Assembly (NCBI GenBank): GCA_004519485.1
Contig: CP038124.1
Location: forward strand, 124,001-188,000
Direction: 5' to 3'
DNA from: Nannochloropsis oceanica
Lineage: Eukaryota > Sar > Eustigmatophyceae > Eustigmatales > Monodopsidaceae
DNA: 64,000 nucleotides
Part shown: positions 36,673 to 57,990 of the stretch, piece after piece
Layout: each line of letters begins with the position of its first letter
Position numbering within the stretch: the first letter of the stretch is position 1
Translations under genes and position numbers: made by a program
The notes under the pieces: model-generated
The model's database searches: none
What the model was told of the DNA's origin: nothing
The model's input: the letters and a program-made list of their open reading frames with translations, nothing else

Positions 36673-38369
36673 TCAAAGTGCTTTCTTGCCGTCTACGTCC
36701 CCTCCTTCTCCCCTGTCTGCGTCCCCCCGCCCTCCTCCTCCTCCTCCTCCTCCTCCTTCTCCTCCACCTCCTCCTCCTCCTCCTCCTCCTCCTCCTCCTC
36801 CTCCCACCACAGCGGGCACGGAACTCAAAAGCAGCCCACTCTTGATCCTCCCCCCCGCCCCTTCACTCTCTCCCTTCCCCCCTCCCTTGGTCCTTGCCGC
36901 ATGCTGCAGGTGCATGGGAGGGGACGCCAGGTCAGGCAGCGATGCCGAGGCCGAGAAAGACGGAGTCATGGGAGGGAGGGAAGGAGGGAGGGAAGGAGGG
37001 AGGGAGGGCGAGACATTGCCGCTGAGGGCTTCTTTATTTTTGGAGGGCGTTTGGAAGGTGGAGGACGGGTGAGAGGGAGGGGGGTTAGTGAGTTGCTGCC
37101 GGTGCTGGTGCTGGTGCTGGTGGTGCTGGTGCTGGTGGTGCTGCTGGTGCTGGTACTCATGCTGGTGCTGGTGGTGCTGGTGGTGCTGGTGGTGCTGGTG
37201 CTGGTGCTGACCCTTTTCTTCACCCGTGCCCTCGTCCTCCTCCTCGACGCATGCCGCACCTATTGCCTTCTCCCTACTGCCGCCGCCTGCCTCCGTGCCC
37301 CAGCCACGTGGACCTCGAGATGGAGTCTCCCCCTCCCCAAGCCCTCCCTCCCTCACTTTCTCCAGCGCACATACCCCATTTATCCCTCCCCCCTCGCCCC
37401 TTCCCCTCCTCATCCCCTCCTCTTTCTCGCCCTCCCTCTCCTTTTGACAAAGTACACACCACTCACACTCCCCCTCTTTCTCTTCCCCCCCGTCCCCCTC
37501 CCCACCCATCGACCCCTTCCTTCTCCTCCTCTTCTGCCTGCTTGCCTCCCTCCCTCCCATCCTCCCCGGAAGATCGAGGCTGTCCAAAATGTCCTTCTCG
37601 AAACGCAGCCAGACAAGGGCGACGAGGAGGGAGAGGGAGAAGAGGAGGCACGCGAGCACGTGAATGGCAACTGGCTGAGGGGAGGAGGGATGGAGGGAAG
37701 GAGGTAGCAGAGGAGGGATAGGTAGGTGAGTGATTGGAAAGAAAGCAGCCTCTTCACGTCCCTCCCTCCCTCCTTCCCTCATTTGCTCTCAACCCCCTTG
37801 CTTTTGCTCACCAGTGGCTCCACTCGTGGGGCCTCTGGAGGAAGATTGCCTCCTCCACGCATGACTGCCTCCAATACATCATGCAGCCCAATTCCCCTCC
37901 CTCCCTCCCTCCCTCCCTCCCTCCCCCCCCCTCCCGTGCTCGGCGAAAAAGTCAGGGGAGGGAGGGAGGGAGGGAGGGCAAGCTTGGGCCCTTGATGGTT
38001 GGGAATTTTGGAGGCGGCTAGACGGGAAGGAGAGTCCCCCAAGTCTTTGTGCGGAAGCGCGGGATCGAGGCGCGGATAGGCCTGCAAGTGCGGCCCGCCT
38101 ACTTTTCCCTCCCTTCCGCCTTCTGGCCTTCCCTCGACGGTGCTCGCTTGCTCCATGAGCGAGGGGAAGGAGTTGATAGTGGCTGGGAGGAGGAGGCTCG
38201 CTGTGCCGCTGCTGCTGGGTGTGCTGCTGCAGCTGCTGCTGCCGGCGATCGGCATGAAGAGGGAACCTTCTTCAGCAGTGACAGGAGAGGGAGGGAGGGA
38301 GGGAGGGAAGGCGTCTTTGTCGTGTGGAAGCAGCGGGGTGGCGGCGACGGTGGCGACGGGGGGAGCCAT
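36673..38369 (-). CDS. Unknown single-pass membrane protein with His/Gln repeats
   Basis: Two exons on the minus strand, 37812-38369 and 36673-37674, joined GT-AG in phase to 519 residues. Not recognised. Residues 1-186 are Pro/Ser-rich with a conserved-looking end (GLHDVLEAVMRGGGNLPPEA). The second exon opens with one strong membrane helix (VLACLLFSLSLLVALVW) and the charged segment LRFEKDILDSL. Then comes a long basic/acidic tail with an HQHQHHQHHQ repeat (from about 37080-37210) and poly-Gly runs. The repeat-rich tail may be partly wrong. A GGGA-rich stretch near 37880-37985 could hide another intron. The single helix and the absence of a signal peptide suggest an internal-membrane anchor. 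Confidence 0.5.
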
Positions 38370-40070
38370 GGTGTCCTGTTGACGAATGGAAAGAAGAAAG
38401 AGAAAGGGTATACTATGGTAAGTGTCTGTAATTCATTGGCAAACGATGCCACTCGGCACGAAGGCGGTTTCCGTCAAATGTTATAAGGACTGTAGGTGGA
38501 GCGGCGAGGACAGGAGGAGCGAGGGGGATGAGGGAAAGAGGGGGAGGAAGCGCAAAGCACTTTCGATCGACGCCTTCCAACTAAAACCTTGGATGCTGGA
38601 ACCACTATTTTGTGGCGGCAATTGACATATGTAAAAGGATCACCACTGTACGTACCGCTATTAAGATGGAGGTAGGATTGGGGAGATTCAAGAAAGCGCG
38701 CTGAAGCGCTGTAGCCAGTTTAGAGACTTCCCATCCGCATTTGAGGTGCTGGCAACAGGCTTGTGGGTGACAGTAGGCTGCTTGCCTTCACCTAATTGTG
38801 CGACTGTGGGGGTGGGTCACAAATAGGGTAGAAGTGAGAAGACGGCTTGACAGCTAGGAGTCTGTCTCCTCACGTAGCACTGCAGGAGAGCCGAGACACC
38901 AGCCAGGATGATGGATGATCAAGTTTGGCAGCCCCAGACTGCGATGACTTAGCCCTGACACGGCAAGCAGGCCCAAAAAAGACAGTAGGTCATAGCATTG
39001 CAATATACATATCACCGGTGGGGTCCATGTGTCCTGAGGGGTCGAAATCCTGTGTCCCGCCGTACAGCGCGATTTCTCACGACGACTGCCGAGGGACCAT
39101 ATTTTATTTTTATTTTTATTTTACACACGATTTAAAAGATGGTCTTGTAGGAAAATTACGTAGGCTCGTCGAAGCCCTTATTATTTTTCCAAGTCTTTCT
39201 TTGGAGTACCTACGACGTCCCCTTTCCTTTGGTCTGACAGGCTCCATAGCGACTCTCCGCATGACCGTGTGCACTGTGCTCTATAGGTAACTGGTATCGA
39301 GGCAAAAAGACGATGATGCAGCAAAATATCACTAACGACGCTTTCTCGCATGCTTTTCAACATATACAAATTTACCAACTGTCCCCGGCATGCACCCTCA
39401 TCGTCGAGAGTAAGTCAGCCGGCACCATTAGCCAAAGCCACAAGCATCAATACCACCGTCTCAATCGAGACAGCGGATACACACACGACAAATAAAAAAA
39501 TATGCTAGAGATACTAGGTTGGAGACAGCCACTACTCCTTATCCCCCCCATCTTCCTTTCCCTCCACTCCCTTCCTCCCCCCCTCCTCCTCCTGAAACTC
39601 TCTCGGAGGGATAGTGGACAGAGAGTGCGAAGAAGGCGAGTGCACACCAGAGGGAGTCATGATAACTGTCGTCCCTTATTCTCGTTATCCCTCTCTCCGT
39701 CCCCTTCCGGGCTGTCCTAGCGAGGACGTTGAGGCCCAAAATTCAAAGTCAAGGCCACCACAGGGCAGGAAGGAGGACTAGCGCGAGAGGCCTTTACGGT
39801 ATAAATGTCTAGTATTGATCCTCGTCGTCGAAACAGCAGCTATGGTAACAGCATGATACGGTATTGAGCACCCACTTTCTGTACCTCCTTCGGCTTCTTG
39901 CCCTGGTGGTGTGTGACTCAGCCGTCTAGGATCGAGTCGTAGGAAGATGTAAGAGGGAGGAGCAGGAACAGCGACCAGCCGCGCGCCCTGCGCCCCATGA
40001 GTCTTCAAAAGAGAGTTCTACCCTTGCCTTCCTCCCAACATTCCTGCGTCTTGGTTCACCTTGTTTGGTA
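38370..40070. other. Intergenic region without recognised gene
   Basis: About 1.7 kb of mixed sequence between the His/Gln membrane-protein gene and the first inverted duplication. Frames are short and carry no family motif. It marks the change from the gene-dense left part to the rearranged middle part. Confidence 0.5.
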
Positions 40071-40084
40071 TTAATGGGAAAGGG

Positions 40085-41090
40085 AGGGAATGGGAAGAGA
40101 GGGGGGAGAGGAAGGGGAGGGAGAGATGGAGTGTTTACCGATGGCACACACCGGTGCTGTCTCTCCTGCACCTATTTGGGGTCCTCCTCCATATGCTCTC
40201 CCGCTAGCTTGTCGGAGGAAGCCATACTAATGCTATTTGGCTCTGATGAGGAGGAGGAGGGAGAAGGAGGAGATGGAGGAGATGGAGGAGATGGAGAAGA
40301 AGAAGGAGAAGGAGAAGGATTGGAGCCCCCTCCCCTTTCTTTTAGGTCTGATGATGACTTCAGCAACTTCGACCAGGCCATGATGGATGAAATTGATGAG
40401 GAAATCCGAAATGGTAGGTTGATATGGTAGGTTGAAACTGGAGTCGGAGGAATAGAGGAAGGGGAGGGAGGCGAGTCAGAGCATGAGGTGCACTTGGTGC
40501 AGCGGGACGGTGGGATGGTGCCCACTCCCTGCTTGCCCGCGTCTCTTTCCGCTCCCATATTTGGTGGGGTTGGGGAAAGAGGGAAGGGGGGAGGCCTGGG
40601 GCCGCAGGAATCACTATCGTCTCAGCAGTCTTGGAGTGCCGGTAGCGCACATCCTGCTCCCCCAGGCCTCTCCCTTGCCCTTCTCCCTCAATGCCTCCAT
40701 AGACCGGACCGGAAAGATGCACGGGAAAGCAGGGAGCGGACACCCTTTCGCCATCTCGCTGCACCACATGCGCAGCATGCACTCCCTCCCCCCCTTCTTT
40801 CTTCTCCTCCTCCGGCTCCAGTCATCATACCGACCAACCTACCATTCCGGACTACCTCATCGACTGTGTCCATCATGGCCTGGTTGACGTTGCTAACGTC
40901 ATCACCAACCCCTCTCCTTCACCCTCCTCCTCATCAGAGCCAAACAGCATCAGTATGGCTTCCTCCGACAAGCTAGCGAGGGAGCACATGGAAGAGTACC
41001 CCAAGTAGTTGGCAGGAGAGGCAGCACGGTGTGTGCCATCGGTAAAAATTCCATCTCTCCCTCCCCTTCCTCTTCTCCTCCTCTCCCCCT
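40085..41090. repeat. Inverted duplication P3, derived from the middle of the giant gene
   Basis: Two arms of about 0.4-0.5 kb, roughly 40085-40600 and 40666-41090, face each other across a short spacer. Each arm matches the segment of the giant minus-strand gene at about 49190-49770. Shared blocks include the peptide SDEEEEGEGGDGG, the stretch QAMMDEIDEEIRNGRL, and the flank reading GGAAGCCATACTAATG. The arms have diverged visibly from each other and from the gene by substitutions and small gaps, so this is the oldest of the three inverted copies. Confidence 0.8.
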
Positions 41091-42086
41091 TGTCGTTGTC
41101 GCAGCGCGGTGGTAGCAGCAGTGGAATGGTATTGAATCCCCTCGTCTCTCTCCCAAAACAAAACACAGGAGCAGTAGTACATACATGTGTCCAAGCCAAA
41201 GGCAAAGAGAGAGCCACAAGCAATGAACGATAAACAAAAATGCTGGTTGCTTCGCTGCCGCCGAGCACTCGTGGCGAAGTGGTGTGGTTGCAGCCTCTTC
41301 ATCTCGAGTATAGCTTTTTCTCTCCGCTCCTTCACGCCAGCCACCACGCCATCACTTTCCTAAAACAAGTACAATATCTAGAGAGGAAAATGTTGCCACT
41401 TGTAGGCCTGGAGAGTTTATATGAAAGTGTGGAAAGGAATGCCGAGAAATTCGATTATTCGACCAAGATGGGGTACGTAAACGATGGAGACCTTAACTCG
41501 GGCACATACGGTGTGAGGCACGCTCGTCGAGGCAGGCACGCAGGAGCGCCACATCTGTTCCCACCCACGACTTATACTGCTGCTGCTGTCCTCTACCACA
41601 ATCTTGCTGTTGCTGTTGCACATGCTGTTGTTGCTGCTGCTGTCGTTGATGCTGGTTCTTTTTGTTGCTTCGGAGGCTGTCGGTCGCCTGTGTGTCAAAG
41701 GGTATAGGGGGATGGTTTAAGAAAGGACGGCGACGGGTTTTCATGAGATGCAGTTGGCGCAGACGAATCAACATAACAGAAAAAGGGAGGGATGTTAGAG
41801 GGAAATGCTTATGGCCTTTTCTTGCATTTAAAAGATCAATTGAAGGCAAGGGCGGGAAGCGGAGAATGACCTCCTCCGTACCTTTTTTATGTGCCCCATC
41901 ATTTTGATCCCCACAACAGGGACAAGTGGGAGCACCCTGACAACGAGCAGCCCATTGTACATGCTATTGTCACACAAGATTATGCGATGATGCACAGAAG
42001 GAGAAGCAATGCACTGACATGCACACGAAAGAACGGAAAATTTTTGTGGTGTGGAGTAATGGGCGAACTAGTTCTTTTTGCCGTTC

Positions 42087-43304
42087 CTACATCCCTATCG
42101 CATGCAACCTGCGTCCTCTAGGACTTGCATACGAGGGGAAGCCTTTCAACAAGAAATTGTTGCATATCCATCCCTTCTTTTTGGTCCGAGTTTTACTAGC
42201 GACTTTGACAGGTCCGTGCTCGACCTGCATCTCAGGGTTGTCCCCCATCCCTTCTTGTACCGCCAGTACCGCCAGATGCTTTTGGTGATACTGGTACAAA
42301 ATGTGGTACAGATACGAGAGGAGGAGCCCTTCCACTGGGGTCTTCTCATTCATGTCCAAACGGGCGGAACCCTCCAGCCTAAGAAGCCGCCGTTCATCGT
42401 CGATGAAATCCTGGACCTCATCCGGGATCTGCCCCACAGGGCCTCCACCACCTGCCCCCCCCTTCCCACTCTTCCCTCCTGCCGATACTCGTGCTCGTGC
42501 CTCTTCTCTTGCTCTAGCTGCTGCCACTCTTGCTGCTGCTCGTGCTGCTGCAGCTGTTGCTGCTATGCTTGCTGTCGTGGCTGCTGCTCCCGCTCTTGCT
42601 GTTGCTGTCGCTTTTAGAGGTCCTCCTCCTCCTTCCCCTCCTCCTCCTCCTCCTCCTCCTCCTCCTCCTCTTCCAGCACCCGCCTGGTTGTCGGTGCGCG
42701 GTCTAATCCAGCCATTGATGAGGCATTGGACACGCTTTGCTGAAACGTCCGGGGACTCCAATCCATGCTCTCGTAGCCAGAATCGCATGTAATCGAGTTG
42801 TCTCCCCACAAACGAGGTCCATGTCTACGCTGCTATATTTGTGATGTATAGCTGTGCCGCCATGGTGATGCATTGGTAGTCGCCCGGGCTACGGTGGATG
42901 AACGGATAATTGGTAAATTTATCCTGAAACACCTCCTCGATGACCCTGCGGTATCCCTCGTTCCACGCTCGGCCGGGTCGAACCTCCAGCCCACGAGCGA
43001 AGCAGGCGGTGACGAAGCTCTGATCCAGCTTCGGAAGAGCCACCTGTTCCTCGACTGGACGACTGAGGTACCAATGCAAAACCTCATTCACCAGGAGTGA
43101 TCCTCGTACGACAATCTCGGACGTGCTCCGAATCTGTCGCTCCAGGGTTTCTAGCAGGACAGTTTTCACTGTCGGATGCCAACCTGGCGCCAGTCGCTTG
43201 GACAGACAACACTTTACACATTGCATCTCCTTTTCTGCTGCTCCTTCCGCTCGGCCATATCCGGTCGTGTGGCTTTAGCAGTCTCGGTTGACGAGGACAT
43301 TTCT
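42087..43304 (-). pseudogene. Broken coding remnant, tentatively Fanzor/TnpB-like N-terminal part
   Basis: Minus-strand frame 43226-42825, continued in the same frame from 42809 to 42087 after a stop; a short N-terminal piece (43304-43221, basic) is in another frame. The product has the pattern of eukaryotic Fanzor N-terminal regions: helical segments around SEIVVRGSLLVNEVLHWYL, KLDQSFVTACF, a Tyr-rich helix, then SFVGRQLDYMRFWLREHG. A Gly/Ala-rich insertion lies at 42530-42690. No RuvC or zinc-ribbon part follows; the frame ends where the segmental duplication resumes. It sits in the 2.9-kb block that splits copy 1, as expected for an inserted mobile element. The family call is from pattern only and is uncertain. 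Confidence 0.3.
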
Positions 43305-43407
43305 GTGATTTGAGGAGGGGGGGGAATAGAGAGGAAGTTTGACGGCTCTAATGGAGGGTGTGGTGTTGTCCTTGGCACAATGGCAAAATGTAAGTTGCAG
43401 TCGCGGT

Positions 43408-43680
43408 GAATGGGTGGGTAGGAAGGAGGGAAAGGAGGGGGGGGGTAAGGTGGGTGCGGCGGCAGTAAACAAAACAGCCGCGTGCCACGCACGCTTGCCT
43501 CGGCGCCCCCCTGTCCCTTTGGTGTGGCCACGATACTGTCGTTCACCTCCAGGCTGACGCGCGGGTGGATCAGCTGTGGGCGTGTGGGTGTGCGGCGCGG
43601 TGAGTGGGTGGGTAGGAAGGAGGGAAAGGAGGGGGGGGGATAGGTGGGTGCGGCGGCAGCCGCGCACGCTTGCCTCGGTT
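43408..43680. repeat. Imperfect tandem repeat of about 190 bp
   Basis: Two copies of a block starting GAATGGGTGGGTAGGAAGGA / GAGTGGGTGGGTAGGAAGGA and running through GGTGGGTGCGGCGGCAG to CGCACGCTTGCCTCGG. It lies just upstream of the broken frame within the inserted block. Confidence 0.75.
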
Positions 43681-43966
43681 CTTGGGAGGAGGGGAAAGCA
43701 TTCTACTGCACCTGGTAATCTACCCTCATGGTAGTGTAGCAGCTGTTGTCCAACATGTAACAACTGGCCTAGACTAGCCTGAAGCCAATGCCGAAGTACG
43801 CATTCCTCGTCCCAGAATGTCACAAAAAGCTTGTCAAACTATTTTTTTGTGGAAGAAGAGAGAGAGAGTCAACGAATGCACTTTCCTTGGGGGGAGCTCG
43901 GCGACTCGTTCGGATTTGGGGCGGGATGTGCTTACATTATCTGACGCACAGGCCAGATTTCATACC

Positions 43967-44050
43967 ATGCTTTGTTTCTGCTTGGCTTTCATCCACGGCC
44001 GTATATATATGCTTTGTTTCTGCTTGGCTTTCATCCAAGACCGTATACGT
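43967..44050. repeat. Two-copy 42-bp tandem repeat
   Basis: Unit starting ATGCTTTGTTTCTGCTTGGC and ending near CCGTATA, present twice in a row with few mismatches. Confidence 0.85.
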
Positions 44051-44350
44051 GGGTTGTTGACTTAAAAGACGACGGGACATTCCTTTCTAGGACTTTCGGG
44101 TAGCGCCTGCTTTGCCGAGGGCGCACATACCACCCAACGGAAAAGCAGATGCACGCACGCGCTGGAATGACCGAAAGATTCGACAACTTCGAGCCTGGCC
44201 TTTCCGTTCTCCCCAAGGGATCATGAGAATGTGCGGACTGAAAAGCAAGATACCTTCTTTTGCGTTCAATTTTATCGTTGCTATCATGCAAAAATGATCA
44301 CCTGGCAATTAATCATTGCCTGGTGTACCTTTTGGTATATTTCCAACACA

Positions 44351-44386
44351 TGGTATGTGCCCGTTCCCTCCAACGGGCACATACCA
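44351..44386. repeat. Perfect 15-bp hairpin
   Basis: Left stem TGGTATGTGCCCGTT (44351-44365), six-base loop CCCTCC, right stem AACGGGCACATACCA (44372-44386). It lies inside the 2.9-kb inserted block and could be a structural end or a transcript hairpin. Confidence 0.85.
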
Positions 44387-45330
44387 AAATATTCACGGTT
44401 TTCACCTTTGTGTTTTTTCCCAAGCACCACCTCGCCACTTGACCTGTCGCACAAAAAATAAAGAAGAATTAGGTCTACATATTTCACTACGTGACTTGGT
44501 GTGTCTTTTTCCTCCGTGTTCATTTGGCGTTCCCAAGTAATTTCTTCCCAGGTGGTCGTCGCCTCATATTTTTTCTATCTTAAATTTTAAATTGAAAATA
44601 AAACCATGAACGTCGAGAACCAGGACGCCAAGACAAGAGGAGCACCATTTGGGGGTTAGGAGGTTTTTGTGGACAAACCTTCGCCACAAACAAATAAACC
44701 ATATATATGGGCGACTAGACAGGAACAGGCAAAGACAGTGGCTGGTGCGGGATGACCGGCAGCCAAAGGAGCGGCTTGTTTAGAGCGGGATGGCAAATCA
44801 CCAAGATCAATCTTTACCATTGAAATGGCATGGAAAAGTCTCCTCCTCCCCCTCCGCCTATTTCCTTTTCCTTCTGCCTCCTCCTCCCCCTCCGCCTCCC
44901 TCCACCTCCTTCTTCCGCATCTCTGTGCCCCGAGTCCTCTCCCTCCTCCCCCTCCGCCTTAATGTCTAGTCTTGTCAGCACAATTCGCGCCTACTCGCAA
45001 AGACACAACCCGTGATTACTCTACCCACAACAGTACGCCCACCTCGCTGATGCAAATATTATCAGGAGCCCCGGCCCGCTACTACAGCTTAGCCTCAGGC
45101 AAACCTCGGGATGATAACGATACGTCAGGTTTCAGGTTGTTATGCAAGTATTTAGTACAGGCTGTTTGTGAAGGAAGGGATCATTACTCTGGTGGCGAGA
45201 TGGAGGTGGCTATAGACATGAGGGCGATGTGTGATAAAGCATAAGCAGACAAGAAAGGGTACTAGACGATGAAGGCCTGTAACAGAGATGGAGGAGGGCA
45301 ACGAGGCGAAAATCAAAGGGAATAGTGCCA

Positions 45331-46700
45331 ATTAAGATTTTTACGTCGCCCATATTTTCTGTCGGGTTTACATCTCTCTGTTGCCCGAGTTGATTGTCCA
45401 CTCTGCGAAATGGCATGTGCGGCCGGGTTTCTGTCCAGCGTATGGTGCCACAGCTTTCGCTTGTCATCAATAGAGTAGAATCTAGGACAAGAATACGGCA
45501 AATTGGCACGCGAATCCTCATTAAAAAAAATTAAAAGTATGAATATCCGCAAGAGTGGTTGCAGTGCTACCCTTGATTAAAAGAAAACGACTTCGTGCTT
45601 ATGCTTTGTAGGTGTCATTGGATTGCTTTGCTGTTGTGTGTCGTCATGTTGTATGAAAGGAGCTGCCAAATATTTCCCGTTAAGGGACCTAAAAAATTGT
45701 GCATACAGGCAAAGCGAAGAAGACTCATGAAGCTTATCACTCCGCAGGTCAAGACTTTGGATACTGGAGAATGCTATCCTTGCAGGCAGAAAAGACTCAA
45801 TATTAACATAACAGGAAAACCAGGTCTCACCGAGCCTTTCTGATTTCGAGGAAGATTTTGCCTCCCGTTCTCACTGTACGTCATGTGCTTGTCGCTCCGG
45901 GTTAGTGAGGATATTTTTTTATTCGATGGCGGCGTGTGTGCGTGGATGCTTACACTACTATCTACCCCCCTCCCCTCCCTCCCCCGACATAGACACATTC
46001 CCCGGAGACCCTCCCAGTGAGACAAAAACACCCTACCGAAACACCTCTTTCGTCCCCCCCAACATACCTGTTGCATATGCCCTTTCGTGCTCCAGCATCA
46101 CCGACACGGTAGATTGCTTGACCCCTCCCTCCCCTCCCTCCCGTCATTCACACATATCCTATCTACATCTCTTACGCATCCTCACACGATTTTTACCGAC
46201 TCCATCGATGAAGATAAATTCCTCCCCAAGTCGACTTAACACATATAAACGCACTTTGTGAGAATCTTGAGGCCTCTTCCACTTACCAGATAAGGCCCTT
46301 TCGGACCCGATTTCCTATCATACCACCATCAGTCTCTCCTACTTTCCAGAATATGCATGCATACAGTCCTCGTCTCTTCCCACACTCTGACAAGACCTCA
46401 ATACCTTCACTCACTTTCTTCTATCGTGCCGCTCTCTCCAAGTAGTAACTTTTCAGGCAGGCAGACACCCATCCAAAGCAACCATCGCGCTTACAATTCT
46501 TGGCTTTGCCATGCGTGCCCTTTCATCTTTCGTCTGCTCCTGACGATACACATCGCCCTAGCAACCTGATCTTGATTTCTTCATTTGTGCCCTTTGTTTT
46601 GCATGACACTTATAAACATACATACATACACCCATGGAATTATGTATCTCTTATTTCTGGTTAATTAGACTAGTACAGACATACTACAAAATTATATACA
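45331..46700. other. Region without recognised gene
   Basis: About 1.4 kb of mixed sequence with short frames only, followed at 46705-46800 by a further partial, diverged copy of the C-terminal region of the giant gene. Confidence 0.45.
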
Positions 46701-46857
46701 CAATATGAGGAGAGGGAGGGTGCGGTGGAGGAAGAGGAGGAAGAGCTAGAGGAGGGGGAGCTCAGGAACGACTTCGAGAAGAGGGGGGACAAGAGCAAGG
46801 AGCGCGGACGACGTCGTTCAATAACACCCGCTCTGTATCTCTCATAGTGCCAGGCTA

Positions 46858-48330
46858 CAAAGGTTCTGGAAGATGGAGAGGACGACGAGGAGAACTAGGG
46901 CAACGAGGGGAGGAAGACGTGGAGTACGAGGAGGTGGGAAAAATGTGTGAGGCAAGGCTGGAAGCCGCTGATGGAATCGCAGTGGGAGGAGACGGAGGTG
47001 AACCGAGCGACGAGGGAGAGGAGAGGGAGGGTGCAGTGGAGGAAGAGGAGGAAGAGCTGGAGGAGGGAGAGATCAGGGAGGACGTCCCGTACGTGTTTAA
47101 AGAACGACGCGGGACAAAGAGGAGGAGGAAAGAGAGGAAAACGAGGCGACAAAAGAAGAGGGTCAAATCACACCACCCGCCGGAAGACGGAGCTTCGGAG
47201 CACGGCGGCAAACGTGGGAGGGATGATGAGGTGGACGATGAGGCGGCTGTCCTTCTCGCTGCGATGCGGGGATATAACACCGAGGAAGGGGGGGGGCTTA
47301 GGGAGGAAGGAGAGGGAGAAGGAAGAGAGAACCAAGGGAGGCGAGGAGGCGGCAGTAGGAGTAGTTGCTTCTGTGCTCGTTGGATTGAGGGGCAACACAG
47401 AAGGAGAGAGGGCTGGAGGGGAAAAGTGAGATGAGGAGGCAAGGAGCACGTAGATTGGGACTTCGCCCCGCTCCATCTCGTCATACGCCACCACCATCTA
47501 TCCACATAAATAAATAGACCATTTCCTCCCAATCTACGTGCTCCTTGCCTCCTCATCTCACTTTTCCCCTCCAGCCCTCTCTCCTTCTGTGTTGCCCCTC
47601 AATCCAACGAGCACAGAAGCAACTACTCCTACTGCCGCCTCCTCGCCTCCCTTAGTTCTCTCTTCCTTCTCCCTCTCCTTCCTCCCTAAGCCCCCCCCTT
47701 CCTCGGTGTTATATCCCCGCATCGCAGCGAGAAGGACAGCCGCCTCATCGTCCACCTCATCATCCCTCCCACGTTTGCCGCCGTGCTCCGAAGCTCCGTC
47801 TTCCGGCGGGTGGTGTGATTTGACCCTCTTCTTTTGTCGCCTCGTTTTCCTCTCTTTCCTCCTCCTCTTTGTCCCGCGTCGTTCTTTAAACACGTACGGG
47901 ACGTCCTCCCTGATCTCTCCCTCCTCCAGCTCTTCCTCCTCTTCCTCCACTGCACCCTCCCTCTCCTCTCCCTCGTCGCTCGGTTCACCTCCGTCTCCTC
48001 CCACTGCGCTTCCATCAGCGGCTTCCAGCCTTGCCTCACACATTTTTCCCACCTCCTCGTACTCCACGTCTTCCTCCCCCTCGTCCCAATCACTAAGAGC
48101 GAGATGTCCATCACCCCCCCCCGCCTCGTCACCAGACACGTAAGCGGAAGGAGGGACCGAGGAAGGAGGAAATGAGGAAGGGATATTGAGGATTCTAGCA
48201 CCACCACCGGCGCTGCGTCTCGAACCACCACGAGCCCCGCGACTCCGAGTGCGAGAGTCTCCCCCTCTTTGCCTTACTGCTCCTCCTCGTCCTCCCCGTC
48301 TAGTTCCAGAACCGTTATGGCCTGCCACGA
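46858..48330. repeat. Inverted duplication P1 of the giant gene's C-terminal part
   Basis: The right arm (47528-about 48330) is the 3' end of the giant gene itself. The left arm (about 46858-47458) is its reverse complement. The spacer is about 69 bp (47459-47527). The inner arm ends are identical over at least 75 bases (for example GAGCACGTAGATTGGGA against TCCCAATCTACGTGCTC). Further out only rare mismatches are seen by eye. The left arm lacks about 160 bp present in the right arm (near 48080-48250). Flanking homology (GGTTCTGGAA) resumes beyond that gap. Confidence 0.92.
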
Positions 48331-51300
48331 AAAGAGATATAGAGGGGGGTTGATTGGATGACGCCGTTCGCGCTTCTTGCTCATGCCCCCCCTCTTCTCG
48401 TTGTCTTTCCTTTTCTCCCTTTCCGCCAACCCCAACACTACCATCGCTAAATACTATGGGAGAGGGAGGAGCGGAGGTAAGGGGAGAAATGAACGGCGCC
48501 GTGGTCGCCAAGCCAAAAGCATGCCCTTGCCCCCCTCCTCTTTCTCCTACTCTTCCCGCCCCCCGTTCAGATACTGGCGTGAGGTAAAAGAACGAGGAGG
48601 AGTCGGAGGGAGGGTAGAAGGGGAGAATAGCGGGCGTCAACCGCGGAGCATATTGCTGTGGCAGACCCCACCCTCCTCCTCCTCCTCCTCCTCCTCCTCC
48701 ACCACCACCGTCACGCCCAACAATGACGGGTCCCATCCCGCACACACTACTGCCTCTACAATTGCTGCTGGGACGGTGAGGAGCCACCCCACGCACAATC
48801 CTCCTACCCGAAGAAATACCTTGTCCTCCTCCTCCTCCACCTCCACCACGCCCAAGCACAGATTGCCCCATCCCACACACACCAACTCTACTGCCACTGC
48901 TGCCGGGACGGCGAGGAGCCACCCCACGCACTATTCTCCTACCCAAAGAAATGCGTCCTTCTCCTTCTCCTCCTCCTCTTCCTCCACTACTCCCGTCACT
49001 TTCAAGCACGGATGGCCCCATCCCACACATACCACTGATGCTGCTGCTGAGACGGCGAGGAGCCACCCCACGCACTATTCTCCTACCCGAAGAACTACAT
49101 CCTTGTCCTTCCCTTCCTCCTCCTCCACCACCACCGTCATCCCCAAGCACGGGATTGAAGGGAGCAGGATGTGCGCTACCGGCACTCCAAGACTGCTGAG
49201 ACGATAGTGATTCCTGCGGCCCCAGCCCTCCCCCCTTCCCTCTTCCCTCAACCCCACCAAATATGGGAGCGGAAAGAGACGCGGGCAAGCAGGGAGTGGG
49301 CACCATCCCACCGTCCCGCTGCACCAAGTGCACCTCATGCTCTGACTCGCCTCCCTCCCCTTCCTCTATTCCTCCGATTCCAGTTTCAATCAACCTACCA
49401 TTTCGGATTTCCTCATCAATTTCATCCATCATGGCCTGGTCGATGTTGCTGAGGTCATCATCAGACCTAAAAGAAAGGGGAGGGGGCTCCAATCCTTCTC
49501 CTTCTCCTTCTTCTTCTCCATCTCCTCCATCTCCTCCATCTCCTCCTTCTCCCTCCTCCTCCTCATCAGAGCCAAATAGCATCAGTATGGCTTCCTCCAA
49601 CAAGCTAGCGAGAGAGCATATGGAGGAGGACCCCAAGGAGTTAGCAGGAGAGACAGCACCGGTGTGTGCCATCGGTGAAAATTCCATCTCTCCCTCCCCT
49701 TCCTCTCCCCCCTCTCTTCCCATTCCCTCCCTCCCTCCCTCCCTCTCCTGTGATGCCACCTCACAAACATGTCGAGACGCGGGAAAAACTGACGAGGGCG
49801 GATTTGAGGAAGTGCGGAGAGAAAGAGATGGGATCAAGCCTGTCACACTCTCTAGATTCTCCACCTCCGTGGTTGGAGTTTGCTCGCCGTCTTCCGGCTC
49901 CTCAACCACTCTTTCTGCCTCAACCGCTCTTTCTGCCTCTGCACGTGAGAGAGAGAGGAATGGAAAGGAGGCACCCTCGTGAAATATCTCTCCATCCTCC
50001 CATTCCTCTCCTCCCCATCGCGTCTCGGCATGTTCATTCTCTACCCCTTCCCCTTCACCTCCACCGTTACCATCTTCATCATCACTTTCATAATCATTAT
50101 CATCACCATCACCACGTTTATCACAACTATCATCACCGTCATCACCACCCTCAACACCATCACCATCATCGTCATTATCATCATCATCATCATCATCATC
50201 ACCATCATCACCATCATTTTCATCGTCGTCACTGTCACAATTATCACAGTTATTATCATCACTGTCATCCCCTGCAGATTCCTCCCCTTCATCCTCTTCT
50301 CCCTTATCACCACTATTAAACAAATTTCCCCCTCCCAGACGTAAAGCCAGGGAGCCATCAGAGAGGGGGTGCGGAAGGTATGCGAGAGGGGAAATGCTGT
50401 CAGGCATACGACTGCCGAATTCACGGTGCCTACATTCCAACTCCCAGTCTTCCACCTCATCGAGCAGCTGCTGATCTTGATGCCCTTGTAGCTGCTGCTC
50501 TTGCTGAAATTGTGATGATTCCCACTCTTCCATCTCATCAATATCTTGCCGTCCCAAAGCATCGGACGAGGAAGTGGACGAGGGGGAGGAGGAGGAGAAG
50601 GAGTAAACCAAGCTGTCGTCTTCCTCAACAGCAATAGGCGTTGGAAGAGGCGAGTTCGAGACGGCGGGAAGAGCTTCAATCAGGTCCAGGGGAGTAGGAG
50701 GGGAGGGAAAGGAGGGTGGGTAGGCGGCTGAAGACGTGGAAGCGGAGTGATCATTAGCCGTCCGCGAGATGATAAAATAGGACCAAGAGACATCGGAGTA
50801 GGAAGAGCGGGAAGAAGAGGAGGAACTAAGCCCGAAGGAGAAGATGGCCTTAGTCTCAGCACTCTCTTCTGGCTCTTTATCATCTGCATTTTCCTCACTC
50901 TCACCCCCAGGCATGTCAACTAGAGGCGCGTCAATGTCAACGGCAACATACACGCATCTACGCCCCTCCCCCGTGCCATCTTTCTCTTCCTGCTCCCCTT
51001 CCTCCCGTTGCTCCTTCTCTGCCTGCTTGCTCCAAATCTCTGACCCGACCGTAGAGAATGGGCATATAGCCGCCTCACGAGCAAAAGAGGCTTGCAATTC
51101 CTGCAAGTCACCATCCTCTGCCCCAAACCCGAACTCGTCCTCAGTCTCCGCCACAGCCGTTGCCGCCACCGCCGGGGCCACCACGGTCGTCGTCAGCGTC
51201 GAGGACGCGTCTAGCACTGATGACGCTTCTTGAGACAGGGAGAAAGGGGAAGACGGCGTAAAGGTGACCTCTGCATCCTGTTGGAGGGAAGGAGGCAGAA

Positions 51301-51845
51301 AAGGAGGGACTGACGAAGCGAGAACACCAGTAAAAGAAGCTGAAGCTGCTGCTGCGACCGGTAATGCTGCTGGGATGGGCCCCGATACTTTGACAGCAAC
51401 TAGCTGCCGGTGCTGTTCCACGTCGATGAAAAACGACGAGAAAATGGGCGGTAAAAAAGAGGAACAGATGAGCGTCAAAGGCTCGTTCGCATTCCCTTTC
51501 GTTTCTTCCTCCCCCTCTCCTTCTATTTTCTCTCTCCTCTCCTTTTCAGACAAGGCCGCCAACATGGAGAAGGACGACGACAAAGGCATTGAGGGAGAGA
51601 ATCCATGCCATATGAGCTGTGCTCGCAAAGACGAGAGAAGAGAGGGAAGTGACACCACCTCACGCGAAGAGGCTACCTGCGGATGTGAAACTTGCCCCTG
51701 CTGCTGCTGCTCCGGCCGCTGGCGTGAGCCCACCGATGGGCCAGTCGACCATGGACTCGGTGTAGAGGAGACGGCTGCGGTCAGCATGGACGGCTCGGAT
51801 TGAGAAAGGGGGCCGTTCAGCAATCGCCGCTGCCGACGCCGCCGC

Positions 51846-51877
<32 letters not shown>

Positions 51878-52917
51878 ATAGGGGTAATGGTTCTGTTGCT
51901 GGTGCTGTTGCTGGTGCTGTTGCTCGTGCTGTTGCTGCTGCTGCTGCTGCTGGTGATGGTGGTAATGGTGCTGATGGTGGTTATAACGGTAGTAGTGGTG
52001 GAAGTGGTAGTGATAGTGGTGGTGGTAGTGGTGGTGGTGGCTGTGGCTGTGGTGGTAATGGTTGTGATGACGCTGCAGTCGCTGCGTAGCTTCTTGGGCA
52101 CAACTGGTACTACCCTCCAGGGGGACCTGAGAGGAGAAAGCAAAGAGGGGGAGGAAGGTGATTAAAAGGGCTTAAAGTTAAGGAGAGGGAAAGACTGAGA
52201 AAAGGATAATAAGTGCGATTCTCTTCTCCTTACATTAGTGGCAATCCCCAAAAGCTGCTGCTGCTGCTGCTGCTGCTGCAGGTTACCCGCTACAGCGTCC
52301 CCCGTGCCCTCTTTCTCCCCCATGTCCCCCGACGGCTCCAGAGCATCACAAAAGCAGCATTCACAGTCCTTTGAGTCCTCCCGCTCTCCTCCCCTGGTGT
52401 CCTCCATTCTTCTTCTCCACTCATCAGCCTCATCAAGCCACCGGATCATGTGCTCGGAGAGGTTCTTCCTCTCTCTCCTCGCCTCCTTCAACTCGATGAG
52501 TACCAATTTGCATTGGTACCAGGTGGAGCACACAATCAGTACCCCGATCATAGCCCACAAGGCACTACCCGTGACTTGCAGGGCTTTGAGGCTAGCCCAC
52601 AGTACAGCCCAAACCTCCTCCAACAACCACACGAAGCGCCACGCATACTTCGCGCGCCAGGTCGGGCCCTCTGCCTCGAGAATCCTTTTGATCAGATCCT
52701 CGGTCATCTCCCATGAACCTCCGTTCTGGTACGAGCGTATCGGGGGCACCACATTATATATCCAGTGATTGAATTTCGGAGGCGGCTTTTTCCCCTTCTT
52801 CCCCTTCTGCTGCTGCTGCTCCTGAGGTGGCTCCTGCTGCCACCACTGCTGAGGCTGCACACGCTCAGACTCCGGCCTGATGATGATAGAGGGTCCCGCG
52901 TTGGGGGCCACATCAGC
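47558..52917 (-). CDS. Giant low-complexity membrane protein (5' partial)
   Basis: Two minus-strand exons, 52234-52917 and 47558-52126, joined GT-AG in phase; at least 1750 residues. The exon at 52917 starts after an acceptor (ccttcaag), so an upstream exon is missing from the model. No family recognised. The first exon has a Gln-rich head, the segment MTEDLIKRILEAEGPTWRAK, hydrophobic segments at about 93-135 (likely one or two membrane helices), a basic helix (ELKEARRERKNLSEHMIRWL) and a Cys cluster. The second exon opens with long His/Tyr/Gln runs, then mixed Ser/acidic segments, an Asp-rich run (50040-50290), four related RRIVRGVAP repeats, and a charged C-terminus. A 4.57-kb exon without interruption, despite repeat runs, argues that it is expressed. 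Three of its segments also occur nearby as inverted copies. Confidence 0.6.
48640..49160 (-). repeat. In-frame tandem repeats with GRRIVRGVAP core
   Basis: Repeats of about 134-144 bp inside the giant gene, with period marks at 48779, 48913 and 49057 (GAGGAGCCACCCCACGCAC on the + strand) plus a diverged unit at 48640. On the minus strand each unit encodes GRRIVRGVAPRRP, then a Ser-rich part, CGMGPSVL and a Gly-rich spacer. Confidence 0.8.
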
Positions 52918-53299
52918 CTTGAAGGGAGGGAGGGAAGGAGAGGGACGAGAGAGACGGAATCAGAGGGTTGGATGATGATTTTTCATTCTTTTAACCACTA
53001 CTTTGGGCCCGGGGCACATGGATCCCTTCGAGCTGTCTCGTGGAGAGAGGAGGGAAGTAGAGGAAGGGAGGAGTGTATGATTTAAACAAAAGAACATAGG
53101 AAGCACTCCATTATTCGCAAACCAACTAAAGACACAAAATGCATGCTCAGTCCAAATATTCAGGCTCAGAAGCACCAATTGGGTTGACACCTCGCCCTTC
53201 ATTCAGCCTGCGTCCGTCCCTTGCTCCCCCCTCCCCTCTCATACCCCTCTCTACCGTCAAAGGGAGCCGCGAGTGTCCAAGGAGATGGTATGAGATATC

Positions 53300-54022
53300 T
53301 AGAACGGAGGTTCATGGGAGATGACCGAGGATCTGATCAAAAGGATTCTCGAGGCAGAGGGCCCGACCTGGCGCGCGAAGTATGCGTGGCGCTTCGTGTG
53401 GTTGATGGAGGAGGTTTGGGCTGTACTGTGGGCTAGCCTCAAAGCCCTGCAAGTCACGGGTAGTGCCTTATGGGCTATGATCGGGGTACTGATTGTGTGC
53501 TCTTACCGGTACCAATGCAAATTGGTACTCATCGAGTTGAAGGAGGCGAGGAGAGAGGGGAAGAACCTCTCCGAGCACATGATCCGGTGGCTTGATGAGG
53601 CTGATGAGTGGAGGAGGAGAATGGAGGACACCAGGGGAGGAGAGCGGGAGGACTCAAGGGACTCAAGGGATTCCTCCCGCTCTCCTCCCCTGGTGTCCTC
53701 CATTCTCCTCCTCCACTCATCAGCCTCATCAAGCCACCGGATCATGTGCTCGGAGAGGTTCTTCCTCTCTCTCCTCGCCTCCTCCAACTCGATGAGTACC
53801 AATTTGCATTGGTACCGGTAAGAGCACACAACAGTACTCCGATCATAGCCCACAAGGCACTACCCGTGACTTGCAGGGCTTTGAGGCTAGCCCACAGTAC
53901 AGCCCAAACCTCCTCCAACAACCACACGAAGCGCCACGCATACTTCGCGCGCCAGGTCGGGCCCTCTGCCTCGAGAATCCTTCTGATCAGATCCTCGGTC
54001 ATCTCCCATGAACATCCGTTCT
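53300..54022. repeat. Inverted duplication P2 of the giant gene's membrane exon
   Basis: Left arm 53300-53652 and right arm 53672-54022 are reverse complements across a 19-bp spacer (CTCAAGGGACTCAAGGGAT). Both match the exon segment 52390-52740 of the giant gene at high identity. The frame containing MTEDLIKRILEAEGPTWRAK is open in both arms, on opposite strands. Small differences, such as TACCGGTAAGAG in the right arm against ACCAGGTGGAGC in the exon, separate the palindrome from the source exon. Both arms share some of these, so the palindrome arose after or from a variant copy. Confidence 0.92.
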
Positions 54023-54081
54023 GGAAAAAGAGGAGAAGACATACACACTCTCTCTTTTTCTCCCTCTCTTTCTCCCTCTCC

Positions 54082-54088
54082 CTCTTCG

Positions 54089-54127
<39 letters not shown>
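54082..54127. repeat. CT dinucleotide microsatellite
   Basis: Run of CT repeats directly beside the right arm of P2, followed by CACT repeats. Confidence 0.9.
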
Positions 54128-54130
<3 letters not shown>

Positions 54131-55308
54131 TCACTCACTCACTTTCTCTCTCTCACACACAGGCACAAATTAATTTCTAGCCACTTTAGCATGCATGATG
54201 TCTGCGTCCTTTATTCTGCTACACGCTGTCTTTCTAATCCCCCTCCCTCCCTTCCGCCCTCCTTTACTTACACTGGCATAGAGACATACACGAGCGAGAG
54301 TGAAGACGCACAGGTAATATTGGAGCACCATCGCGCCCACGACGGCTCGGAGAGCAATCGCCATATTTTCCGATACTCGTTAAATCACGAATTTGGCTAG
54401 ATAGCCTGGGGGAAGAAAAGGAGGGAGGGCGGGAGGGAGGGAGGGAGGACAGTGAGGCAGGGGGATGAAATGGGTGCGCGAGTCTGCAAGTGCAGATAGT
54501 GAGGTGCGGTGATTTAAGGGAGGGAAAGGATGGAGGGGTAAGAGGTGCAGAGAAGGTCCAAAGGTCGAAATCGTGAGTGCCAGCCCGGGAGTGCAGGCCT
54601 GGGAGGGAGGAGGAGAGGGGAGGGAAGTAGGAAGGGAGGGATGGGTGTGACTTGTCAGCAAGGTTGGGGAGCGACCGCGGAGAGGACGCACAGGGCGTGA
54701 CCGTAATAATGCAGCATGTTTTCTCCCATAAGCAGCCTGTGTGCTACACACAGTGTCCCTGTGCTCGTGCATGCAGGAAGGGCAGGCAGGGGGGACTGTG
54801 GTGGGTTGAGGCACAGGCCTTTCATGAGCACCAGTCAAATCAAACGCTCCAAGGGATGCCCACAGAAAATTGTGCCCACACACGGAGACTCGGAGCTGCA
54901 GGCGATGCGCAATGCTTGACAGTAAGAAGGAAAGAGCTCAAAGCAGGTGACTTTGATGGTGTGAGCAGGCTCTGCACTAGCAGGCTGTCAAGCAAACCTT
55001 ATGAACTTAGGCTCGTCTGAAGAAGATTCGTGGCCTGCGCTCGCTAGATGAATTTTCAGAGTGAAGCTAGGATCTTTGTGGCGCAGAACGCAGAATGTGA
55101 TATTGATGGAGGGAGAAGGTGCTGGAAAACTTCGACACAAGAGCTGCCCCAAACAAAGCTGAGGGGCAAAAATGCCAGCAGAGGGAATAGAGGATGTCAT
55201 GCGACAGAACAGAGCGAGCAAAAACTTACCATGGGTGAACAACAGCATTAAGTGTGGGATTTAACGAGGCTGATCGAAGGAGGTAATCGAAAAAAGGCGT
55301 CCTGCTAG
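54128..55308. other. Region without recognised gene
   Basis: About 1.2 kb with GGGA runs near 54420-54620 and otherwise short frames. Nothing could be assigned. Confidence 0.45.
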
Positions 55309-55782
55309 CTACTGTAGATCAACGGCTTTACTGGCATGTTCGTCGAATATGACAAGGCGGATTTTTCGCTGGTATTCTCCTTCCATACGGATCATTGTTC
55401 GATCTGGAAGCTGTAGAAGTAGGGATGCGAAGCACGTGCCCTGTTGCCGTGAACTGCTTTCCCAAGACTTGGCCACAACCCGTGCATGTGCTTTGGCGTT
55501 ATTGCCGGACGCGGGAAGAAGCACATTCTTGTACGCAGTTCGAAGCGGCATCGCATGTGCCTTGACGAAAGCAGCGAGTCGTGCACGTCGCATGGCCTCG
55601 CAAGCGGTGCCGTACTGCTTTGGCTGCCGGGACAGGTAGTTTCGTCGTGCGGTGGGCATGACCTGTGAGAGAGTGGGGTGGACATTGATTAGATGGGCCT
55701 GCGATGACGAGCGGAAAAGGGGGGGAAACAGGCGCCTATGCGAGACCTTATTCCGCCAAACCAAGCGTGACATGGCTGACAT
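55309..55782 (-). CDS. Hypothetical basic protein, possible mitochondrial presequence
   Basis: Frame of 157 codons in non-repetitive DNA. The first 55 residues contain many Arg and Ser and no acidic residues (MSAMSRLVWRNKVSHRRLF), as in mitochondrial presequences. The rest (RRARLAAFVKAHAMPLRTAY and VIFDEHASKAVDLQ) is balanced in composition but not recognised. A strong acceptor-like tract (ctctctcacag) lies inside the frame at about 55664. The first part could therefore instead be intron, with another 5' exon upstream. Confidence 0.38.
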   Translation of the reverse strand: MSAMSRLVWRNKVSHRRLFPPLFRSSSQAHLINVHPTLSQVMPTARRNYLSRQPKQYGTACEAMRRARLAAFVKAHAMPLRTAYKNVLLPASGNNAKAHARVVAKSWESSSRQQGTCFASLLLQLPDRTMIRMEGEYQRKIRLVIFDEHASKAVDLQ

Positions 55783-56069
55783 TAATGTTTATGCCTCTTG
55801 GTGGGACGGACAGGGAGTGGATGGTGTATCACACAGGTCAAACAACGAGGAAAGTAAATTACATTAAGCAAAACAGTAATATAGTAAACGGATGCGTTGA
55901 ATCTCTTGTGTCGGAGAGACGAGACATTGTTCAACAGATCTAACTTGCCTCTTGTAATTCCTCTTTCCTTGTCATCTTCACGCGCAGCGCGACACCACGG
56001 GAAGAATGCGGCAGCATATATGTAGGGCATGGCGGCTTAGCTGATCACTGGACCAAGGCGCTTCTTTGC

Positions 56070-56668
56070 TTACACGCCCGCCTCTAGCTCTTCTTTCTCC
56101 GACGCTACCACCAGGGCAATTCGCTGGTGTTTGTCGCGCCGGCCCATCTTGAAAAGTACTTGTAATGTGTATGGTGGGACCGCCGTGGGAGCTGGGTCGT
56201 CATCATGCTTAGTGAACGCAGAGATGTTGCCGAACTCGAAGAGAGAAGGAGGGGCCAGGTGACCAGGGGACATACGTGGGGAGGTCGAAAGCTGCTTGGT
56301 TAGAAAGTGGCAGTTGTATGCGTGTGTAATTTACATGTACATTCCGATATCAGGAAGGCATAGAACGTAGAAATCATTCTTACCAAACTAAGCTGCATCC
56401 TCCATTTGCGTTCTACTAAAAACCGCCCTCGATCCACGCTTGCTCGAATGTGACTAGCGGTGCCGTCGAAGTGAAGGGGCTTCATTGCAGCTGTGAAGGC
56501 TGTAGAACGGCAACGTAGTCCTGGGTATACTCTTGGGTCCATATGATATCTCAAAAATTTTCGAAGTGGCGGGAAGAAGAGTTTTGGCTCAGGATAAATA
56601 TGAGAATCGGAAAGAGGAGGACCTACAGACGAGGAGCATGGCGTAAGGAAGAGGCAGGAGGCGAACAT
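56070..56668 (-). CDS. Hypothetical two-exon protein
   Basis: Exons 56384-56668 and 56070-56291 on the minus strand give 168 residues. The intron has a good donor (GTAAGAATG), a CTAAC branch-like site and a CAG acceptor, and leaves the frame intact. Product: a neutral N-terminus, HFDGTASHIRASVDRGRFLV, then LFEFGNISAFTKHDDD and a basic-to-acidic end (KMGRRDKHQRIALVV). No family recognised. Three in-frame ATGs could serve as start. It adjoins copy 2 of the segmental duplication. Confidence 0.42.
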
Positions 56669-56689
56669 AAAGGCTTAGAGAGAGCCATT

Positions 56690-57990
56690 GACATTGAACG
56701 ATGAACAAAGTCGCTGGTGGCTTCGCTGCCGCCGATCATACGTGGCGAATGGTCAGGTTGATGCTTCTGCTACTCGAGTTCTTTTTTCTCTCCGCTCCTC
56801 AACGCCAGCTACCATGCCATCATCTTCCTAGAGCATCTACAATGCCAAGAAAGGAAAATGTTGCCACTTGTGGGCCTAAGTTTATGAAAGTGCGGACAAG
56901 GAATGCTGAGGGGTTTGTTTGTTCGACCAAGATGGGATACGTAAACGATGGAGACCTTAACTCGGGCACGTACGGTATGAGGCACGCTCGTTGTTGCAGA
57001 CACGCCGGAGCCCCACATCTGTTCCCTTCCACGACCACTGCTGCTGCTGCTGCGGTCCTCTACCAGGGATCTTGCTGTTGCTGTTGCACATGCTGTTGTT
57101 GCTGCTGCTGTCGTTGATGCTGGTGTTCCTTGCCTTGTTGCTTCGGTGGTTGTGAGCCGCCTGTGAGTGGAAGGGTGTAGGGGGATGTTGGAAGAAAGAA
57201 CGGCAAAGTGAAATGCAGGTAGCCCAGAAGACTCGACAAAATAGAATAAAGGAGACGTATTTGAGGAAAATGTTCACTCCATGGGCCTTGATTGACACAG
57301 GATGCATTGTATAATGAATCAGACAAGGGATAACCTCCTCACCCTGGCGCCCTTTTATGTGCCCGACCATTTCGCTTCTCTTAAAGCGACAAGTGGGAGA
57401 AACCTGGCCACGAGTCTACCTATCGTCCATGTATTGATCGATCATAAAAGTATCTGATATACAGAAGGAGAGGCAAGGCACCGATATGCACACGAAAGAA
57501 CGGAAAATGCGACTAGTCTTTTCCGAGCACAACTCGTGCATACTCGCACACACAGATACCACCCGTTTTCATATCACTAACCGCACAATGCATGGACCCC
57601 GTATGGATCCTCAGTCAAGCTCGAGGGGACATGGATCCCCCTGATCCCCTGTGGACCCTCAGTCAAAGGGATATAGCCCGTAACACAGGTACAAGGATTA
57701 CTAAAAGCCCCGGCCTGCATTCCGCCACTACAAGAGTGATGTAAGTCCTTGTGGCAGGCAGTACGCGGGATTGGATGACGATACACCAGTTGTTGCGCAA
57801 GCATAAAGTACCGGTTGCTTGTGAAGCAAGAAAGATTTTTCCTCGCGGCAAGATATAGGTAGTTGTAGATATGTGGGCGATGTGCGATAGAGCACGAAAG
57901 GATAAGAAAGGGCATATGACAATGAAAGTAAGAGAGAGGAATACAATAGCCCGCAAGGAAAAAAAAGGAATACTGTGTGGAAGTAAGGAA
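56690..57990. repeat. Segmental duplication, copy 2 (uninterrupted)
   Basis: Uninterrupted counterpart of 41220-42040 plus 44965-45330. Both copies keep an almost identical CAG/Gln-type repeat block near 41578-41650 and 57036-57120 and the segment AACTCGGGCAC. Away from these blocks the copies differ by many substitutions. Neither carries a recognisable gene; a minus-strand Gln-rich frame is present in both. Confidence 0.8.

What the first reader, a model, noticed from the sequence alone, without database searches (positions are those of the whole stretch)
40085..54022. Three inverted duplications, each made from a different part of one nearby giant gene
The C-terminal part (P1), the middle part (P3) and the membrane exon (P2) of the gene at 47558-52917 all recur close by as head-to-head palindromes with short spacers. 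Ordinary tandem or dispersed duplication does not give this pattern. Transcripts through P1-P3 would fold into hairpins matching the coding gene, as hairpin-RNA loci that silence a parent gene do. Alternatively, foldback or template-switch repair acts repeatedly on this locus. The hairpin-RNA role is inference; the structure is read directly.
Basis: partly seen in the sequence, partly recalled or inferred. Interest (0 to 1): 0.8.

Follow-up and report, generated by a model that had tools for sequence, protein, structure and literature searches.

The report
Fold-back copies of one algal gene
In an oil-producing marine alga, pieces of one long gene have been copied next to it as mirror-image DNA palindromes, probably by recurring DNA-repair slips; whether the hairpin RNAs they could give rise to silence the gene is untested.

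Summary
The palindromes are real. P1 (46907-48079), P2 (53298-54025) and P3 (40081-41091) are built from parts of one low-complexity gene (about 47558-52959, minus strand). Two corrections: in P1 the gene's own 3' end is one arm, so it is a fold-back of the gene; in P3 only the left arm is young (about 96% identical to the gene), the right arm being an old, frame-broken relative (74-88%). The genome is Nannochloropsis oceanica by exact length of its longest contig. Arms differing by 0.5% (P1) to 28% (P3) argue against read chimeras. The structures differ in age and architecture; P3 turns at a 6-10 nt microhomology, and P1 steps from 99.5% to 78% identity. I read this as recurrent fold-back/template-switch DNA synthesis with later conversion by the parent. 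A similar palindrome (arms about 343 bp) turned up in 1 of 14 random 10-kb pieces, so the process is not unique to this locus, though three at one gene suggests a hotspot. Piwi, RdRP and tandem RNase III genes are present, and most 21-mers of four of the five arms match the gene, so hairpin-RNA silencing is possible; no RNA data were available to test it.

The parts
47558..52126 (-). Main exon (stop-to-stop ORF of 1537 codons, 52171-47558) of the parent gene; low-complexity protein, no Pfam match
52234..52959 (-). Upstream exon of the parent gene with a hydrophobic stretch (judged by eye); start codon not established
47527..48079 (-). P1 right arm: the gene's own C-terminal coding end and about 30 nt past its stop codon
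47461..47526 (.). P1 spacer, 66 nt
46907..47460 (+). P1 left arm: inverted copy, 2 mismatches and 1 gap column in 554; 448 of 534 21-mers match the gene span
46756..46903 (+). Older outer part of the P1 left arm, 78% identical (inverted) to 48262-48419
46707..46775 (+). Outermost inverted fragment, 90% identical to 47900-47968
52365..52729 (-). Part of the gene from which P2 derives
53298..53663 (+). P2 arm A: inverted copy, no stop in the 120 codons compared
53669..54025 (-). P2 arm B: direct copy, frame broken by a small indel
49160..49732 (-). Part of the gene from which P3 derives
40081..40661 (+). P3 arm L: young inverted copy (15 mismatches and 10 gap columns in 582)
40652..41091 (-). 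P3 arm R: old direct relative (74-88%), matches the gene protein in broken pieces
40640..40665 (.). P3 turn: R meets L at GGGAGCAGGA, which also stands at the gene end of the copied stretch (about 49160); read by eye
41198..42041 (+). Flanking element next to P3, 76% identical to 56669-57508; third copy on C13. Possibly part of an old direct duplication together with arm R

Best explanation
The three palindromes are scars of repeated fold-back or microhomology-primed template switching during DNA synthesis at one gene, followed in places by conversion with the parent gene. A 3' end at a break or stalled fork turns round, or pairs by a few bases with the opposite strand of the nearby gene, copies a few hundred bases, and is sealed back. 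P1: the gene's 3' end was copied back from just past its stop codon. P3: an end in an old gene relative (R) jumped to the gene at GGGAGCAGGA and copied about 570 bp in the opposite direction. P2: a fragment of the upstream exon was inserted as a ready-made palindrome or folded back after insertion. Shown here: the structures, relative divergences, locality and the P3 microhomology. Inferred: the order of events and the enzymes.
For: Short spacers: 66 nt (P1), 5-13 nt (P2), overlapping turn (P3). The P3 turn shares 6-10 nt with the start of the copied stretch. Three-way counts: P2 gene/A/B private differences 6/3/5 with 339 shared columns (star-like); P3 gene/L/R 5/8/77 with 336 shared (L young, R old). 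P1 steps from 99.5% to 78% identity with a jump of about 178 bp. Sources are local: no comparable copies outside the window in the stretches searched. A similar object lies at C7:918955-919646 (arms about 343 bp), the flank of one arm continuing in two related C13 stretches. P1 outer and L show little protein constraint (pN/pS 0.99 and 0.84). Precedent, abstract only: fold-back inversions and inverted pairs of inserts from one locus at yeast breaks (PMC11724301).
Against: Microhomology was resolved at only one of three turns. The yeast fold-backs of that abstract are mostly 5-34 bp, much shorter. A scan for short hairpins (perfect arms of 16 or more) gave 3 in the 140-kb sample against 3,0,0,0,0 in five simulated controls, so no clear genome-wide excess of small fold-backs. 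pN/pS of 0.29-0.46 in P1 inner, P2 A and P2 B rests on 2-11 changes and cannot exclude constraint. No other strain or species could be compared.
Confidence: 0.68

Rival explanations
1. A cluster of hairpin-RNA loci: transcripts through P1-P3 fold into long duplexes, a Dicer-like enzyme cuts them and the siRNAs silence the parent gene. P1 could act in cis, since read-through of the gene's own mRNA past the stop codon would make the hairpin.
For: Piwi, RdRP and tandem RNase III domains in the genome. P2 RNA folds at -773.7 kcal/mol against a mean of -271.3 for 20 shuffles, P3 at -699.5 against -392.6. 21-mers matching the gene span (unspliced): 448 of 534 (P1 left), 225 of 346 (A), 214 of 337 (B), 347 of 561 (L), 12 of 420 (R). 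A hairpin construct is reported to silence a gene in N. salina (PMC12133928, passages). In Phytophthora infestans, inverted and tandem repeats gave the most small RNA per Mbp (PMC3804510, passages).
Against: No evidence of transcription or small RNAs. P3 R has lost almost all perfect matches to the gene. Any young inverted copy would pass these tests whether or not it works. The palindrome on C7 shows that such objects arise elsewhere too.
Confidence: 0.15
2. The arms are remnants of old paralogous copies of the gene (inverted and direct), kept similar to it by gene conversion, rather than fresh fold-backs.
For: R (74-88%) with the neighbouring element at 76% suggests an old direct duplication; P1 has an old outer piece at 78%. 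The step in P1 identity is what a conversion tract would leave.
Against: Does not by itself explain head-to-head placement with tiny spacers, nor P2, where both copies are about equally close to the gene.
Confidence: 0.25
3. A mobile fold-back element that carries gene pieces.
For: Palindromic shape; a similar palindrome on C7, whose arms do have relatives on C7 and C13.
Against: P1, P2 and P3 arms have no comparable copies elsewhere in the genome, and differ from one another in sequence. Shared end sequences were not searched systematically and target-site duplications were not tested.
Confidence: 0.03
4. Assembly or read-chimera artefact.
For: The published assembly used PacBio reads of 4.3 kb mean length, and the P1 arms are 99.5% alike.
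Against: Arms differ by base changes and indels (P2 and P3 by 2-28%), and the P1 arms have different flanks. Depth about 113-fold with Illumina polishing. Reads of that length can span each palindrome; I saw no reads.
Confidence: 0.03

Closest known systems
Fold-back inverted duplications and microhomology-mediated template switching (yeast break repair, PMC11724301, abstract; human inverted duplications, PMC3907307, search listing only)
   Same: Inverted copy next to its source, tiny spacer, microhomology at the turn (P3)
   Different: Copies here are about 360-570 bp, three at one gene, of different ages; formation not observed
Drosophila hairpin-RNA (hpRNA) loci (PMC10317233, passages)
   Same: Long inverted repeats homologous to a protein gene; RNAi genes present; [quoted passage not shown]
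   Different: No transcript, siRNA or target response known here; the arms lie beside the target, one of them in it
Natural inverted-repeat silencers in plants: soybean I locus (PMC3804491) and maize Mu killer (PMC3440606), starts of abstracts in a search listing only
   Same: Inverted duplication of a gene or part of it, related to the target
   Different: Those have siRNA or silencing evidence
Phytophthora inverted-repeat siRNA loci such as pin-IR2758, 714 nt (PMC3804510, passages)
   Same: A stramenopile; similar palindrome length
   Different: Small-RNA reads exist there; none were available here

Membership tests
Fold-back / template-switch inverted duplication | Inverted copy of nearby sequence with short spacer | tested here: met
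Fold-back / template-switch inverted duplication | Microhomology at the turn | tested here: inconclusive
   P3: 6-10 nt; P1 and P2 turns not resolvable without the ancestral sequence
Fold-back / template-switch inverted duplication | Absence of the copy in a relative that keeps the source | not testable with these tools
   no relative genome held
Endogenous hairpin-RNA (hpRNA) silencing locus | Long inverted repeat able to fold into a long duplex | tested here: met
   P2 and P3 folded; P1 not folded, judged from arm identity
Endogenous hairpin-RNA (hpRNA) silencing locus | siRNA-length identity to a target gene | tested here: met
   weak for arm R (12 of 420)
Endogenous hairpin-RNA (hpRNA) silencing locus | RNAi machinery in the organism | tested here: met
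   Piwi, RdRP, tandem RNase III domains; other Dicer and Ago domains not checked
Endogenous hairpin-RNA (hpRNA) silencing locus | Transcript through both arms, Dicer-dependent small RNAs, target derepressed without Dicer | not testable with these tools
   no RNA data held
Fold-back transposon or MITE | Many copies in the genome | tested here: not met
   P1, P2, P3 arms have no comparable copies outside this locus; the search warns that repeats may be undercounted
Fold-back transposon or MITE | Common ends and target-site duplication | not tested
   -

The most novel reading that the evidence does not exclude
A self-targeting hairpin-RNA cluster: one algal gene has, within 14 kb, three hairpins covering its upstream, middle and 3' parts, one of them formed by its own 3' end, so that the gene is held down in cis by RNAi; nascent hpRNA loci would then arise continually in this genome by fold-back repair, as the second palindrome on C7 hints.
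Probability: 0.12. Interest if true: 0.75.

Novelty: new member of a known kind. Interest (0 to 1): 0.42.

Why it matters
Gene-fragment palindromes are the raw material from which hairpin-RNA and miRNA genes are thought to be born. A small-genome alga with RNAi genes and fold-backs of different ages at one gene would let the birth step be watched: compare strains for presence or absence, and sequence small RNAs to see at what age, if ever, a scar becomes a regulator.

Tried and rejected
Rfam at its gathering thresholds gave no match and ARAGORN no tRNA in the window. Pfam gave no match for the two gene ORFs. A weak protein match on C14 looks like low-complexity sequence: a translated comparison of the locus with window 38001-58000 gave nothing at 1e-5. 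A general excess of small hairpins was looked for and not clearly found. Of these 14, two passed the screen (alignment at least 100 bases, at least 75% identity, arms under 2 kb apart): L051, counted, and L046, a low-complexity pair about 1.8 kb apart, dropped from the count. Loci brought in by similarity searches were scanned too but left out of the rate because they are not random; among them L021:319-452 (78%, low complexity) and L022:2589-2700 (76%) are short imperfect palindromes, as is window 3757-3918 (72%, below the screen). I first took the C7 palindrome to turn just after a gene's stop codon, like P1; one search shows that the stop lies in the loop while the related frame in L054 reads on, so the likeness was dropped. 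I considered that P3 R diverged through a directed mutation process; its 77 changes are 39 C/T, 15 A/G and 23 others, in both directions, so this was dropped. Paper searches for Nannochloropsis with Dicer/Argonaute (8 papers, 8 listed), inverted repeat/hairpin RNA (663, 20 listed), RNAi/siRNA/small RNA (9,314, 10 listed), palindrome (8, 8 listed) and small RNA sequencing/microRNA (4, 4 listed) listed nothing on palindromic gene fragments in the nuclear genome; I judged from titles and starts of abstracts, and the library is open-licence PMC only.

Full report
Organism. The window is C26:124001-188000 of a 29,264,788-base, 32-contig genome. Contig C1 has 1,670,642 bases, exactly the longest pseudochromosome in Table 1 of the 2019 Nannochloropsis oceanica assembly, which has 29.3 Mb in 32 pseudochromosomes, 30 nuclear plus two organellar (PMC6610115, passages). 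Plastid PsaB on C32 is identical over the 722 residues compared to PDB chain 8zo9_b (the listing does not name that organism). That assembly used PacBio reads of 4.3 kb mean length at about 113-fold depth, with PacBio and Illumina polishing.

Observation. The three palindromes are present. P1: arms 46907-47460 and 47527-48079, spacer 66, 2 mismatches and 1 gap column in 554. P2: 53298-53663 and 53669-54025, loop 5-13, both copies of 52365-52729; 10 mismatches (gene-A, of 363), 11 mismatches and 2 gap columns (gene-B, of 358), 8 mismatches and 3 gap columns (A-B, of 357). P3: 40081-40661, an inverted copy of 49160-49732 (15 mismatches and 10 gap columns in 582), head-to-head with 40652-41091, a direct relative. 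In one search the inverted pairs in the window with alignments of at least 100 bases, 75% identity and under 2 kb apart fill seven rows (five distinct pairs), all inside 40089-54025.

The parent gene. Two ORFs on the minus strand (52959-52162 and 52171-47558, the latter 1537 codons) are probably joined by an intron at 52233-52127; the donor and acceptor strings are and the phase fits by arithmetic. The protein is low in complexity with one hydrophobic stretch (by eye) and no Pfam match. In the parts searched it is single-copy: DNA searches with 46700-49000, 53298-54025 and 40081-42041 and protein searches with 47561-50032 and 52165-52923 find no other good match of the gene; 50033-52164 was not searched. 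Matches elsewhere are 29-70 bases on C23 and C27, GGA-type repeat, the flanking element, and a weak match on C14 that looks low-complexity.

Ages. P2: of 353 compared columns, 339 are shared and the gene, A and B have 6, 3 and 5 private differences, so all three are about equally distant. P3: the gene, L and R have 5, 8 and 77 private differences, 336 shared, 2 differing in all three, 94 gap columns set aside, so L is young and R old. P1: about 553 bp at 99.5%, then, after about 178 bp present only in the gene, an older stretch at 78%, then a third piece at 90% from another part of the gene. The same locus has thus been hit several times, at different dates, or partly converted. R lies beside an element 76% identical to 56669-57508, upstream of the gene, which may mean that R is the remnant of an old direct duplication; this is a suggestion, as the element has a third copy on C13.

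Junctions. At the P3 turn the minus strand reads from R into L through GGGAGCAGGA, which stands also at about 49160 in the gene where the copied stretch begins; the R side's homologue in the gene keeps only GCAGGA, so the usable microhomology was 6-10 nt (sequences, read by eye). P1 turns about 30-100 nt past the gene's stop codon. In P2 both arms end within a few bases of the same gene position (52727-52729), as a self-primed, filled-in single strand would; this is inference. The P2 loop contains a 9-nt unit twice.

Background. Fourteen random 10-kb pieces were examined, of 120 drawn (scans 38, 52, 56). One holds a similar palindrome: L051:8955-9646 = C7:918955-919646, self-alignment 95.7%, arms about 343 bp. 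A second piece, L046, passed the screen only with a low-complexity repeat and was dropped. The L051 arms are a gene-like fragment; a related stretch 76 kb away on C7 (76%) shares its reading frame, and two stretches on C13 match the outer 118 bases (97%) and the flank of one arm. A stop codon lies in its loop, but the related frame in L054 reads on past that place, so the turn falls inside a gene rather than at its natural end. So such palindromes arise elsewhere: 7 per Mb, 95% interval 0.2-40. Three of the four palindromes counted lie in 14 of 204 kb, P = 0.0012 by a binomial reckoning, but this locus was picked because of them, so the number overstates the case. Short hairpins are not in clear excess.

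RNAi prerequisites. Piwi domain pieces lie on C14; RdRP matches lie at two places on C16, one with four TAG stops inside the match; two RNase III domains stand in one 1883-codon ORF on C7. Hairpin strength and 21-mer counts are as given under the first rival. In N. salina the authors report Argonaute, Dicer and RDR and silencing by a hairpin construct (PMC12133928, passages). In P. infestans, another stramenopile, inverted and tandem repeats gave the most small RNA per Mbp, and a 714-nt inverted repeat gave heterogeneous 21-nt siRNAs (PMC3804510, passages). These make silencing possible, not shown.

Coding constraint. pN/pS against the gene: P1 inner 0.29 (2 changes), P1 outer 0.99 (32), L 0.84 (15), R 0.57 and 0.34 (59 and 17), A 0.39 (10), B 0.46 (11). 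The R values suggest that the gene has been under protein-level constraint for part of its history; the inner P1, A and B values rest on too few changes to use.

Verdict. The most economical account is repeated fold-back or template-switch copying at one gene, with conversion. Hairpin-RNA silencing remains an open and testable possibility.

Noticed in passing
L051:8955-9646 (C7:918955-919646): A 692-bp palindrome of a gene-like fragment, of the same general kind as P1-P3, in a randomly drawn piece of the genome.
   Followed up: partly
L054 (C7:994200-995400): The relative of that fragment carries a short insert that reads, by eye, as an inverted copy of its own neighbouring sequence, a possible small fold-back event; the fetched stretch ends in telomere-like AGGGTTAGGG though it lies inside the contig.
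   Followed up: no
L055 and L056 (C13:719000-719700 and 725900-726500): Two near-identical stretches 6.8 kb apart on C13, a recent local duplication.
   Followed up: no
41198-42041 and 56669-57508: Direct repeat, 76% identical, flanking the palindrome region; a third copy on C13:187909-188251 (80%).
   Followed up: partly
48689-49131: Tandem array with a period of about 135-144 bp inside the parent gene's coding sequence.
   Followed up: no
G000 C16:595627-596797: Second RdRP-like stretch with four TAG stops inside one match, possibly a broken copy beside the intact one, or introns read through.
   Followed up: no
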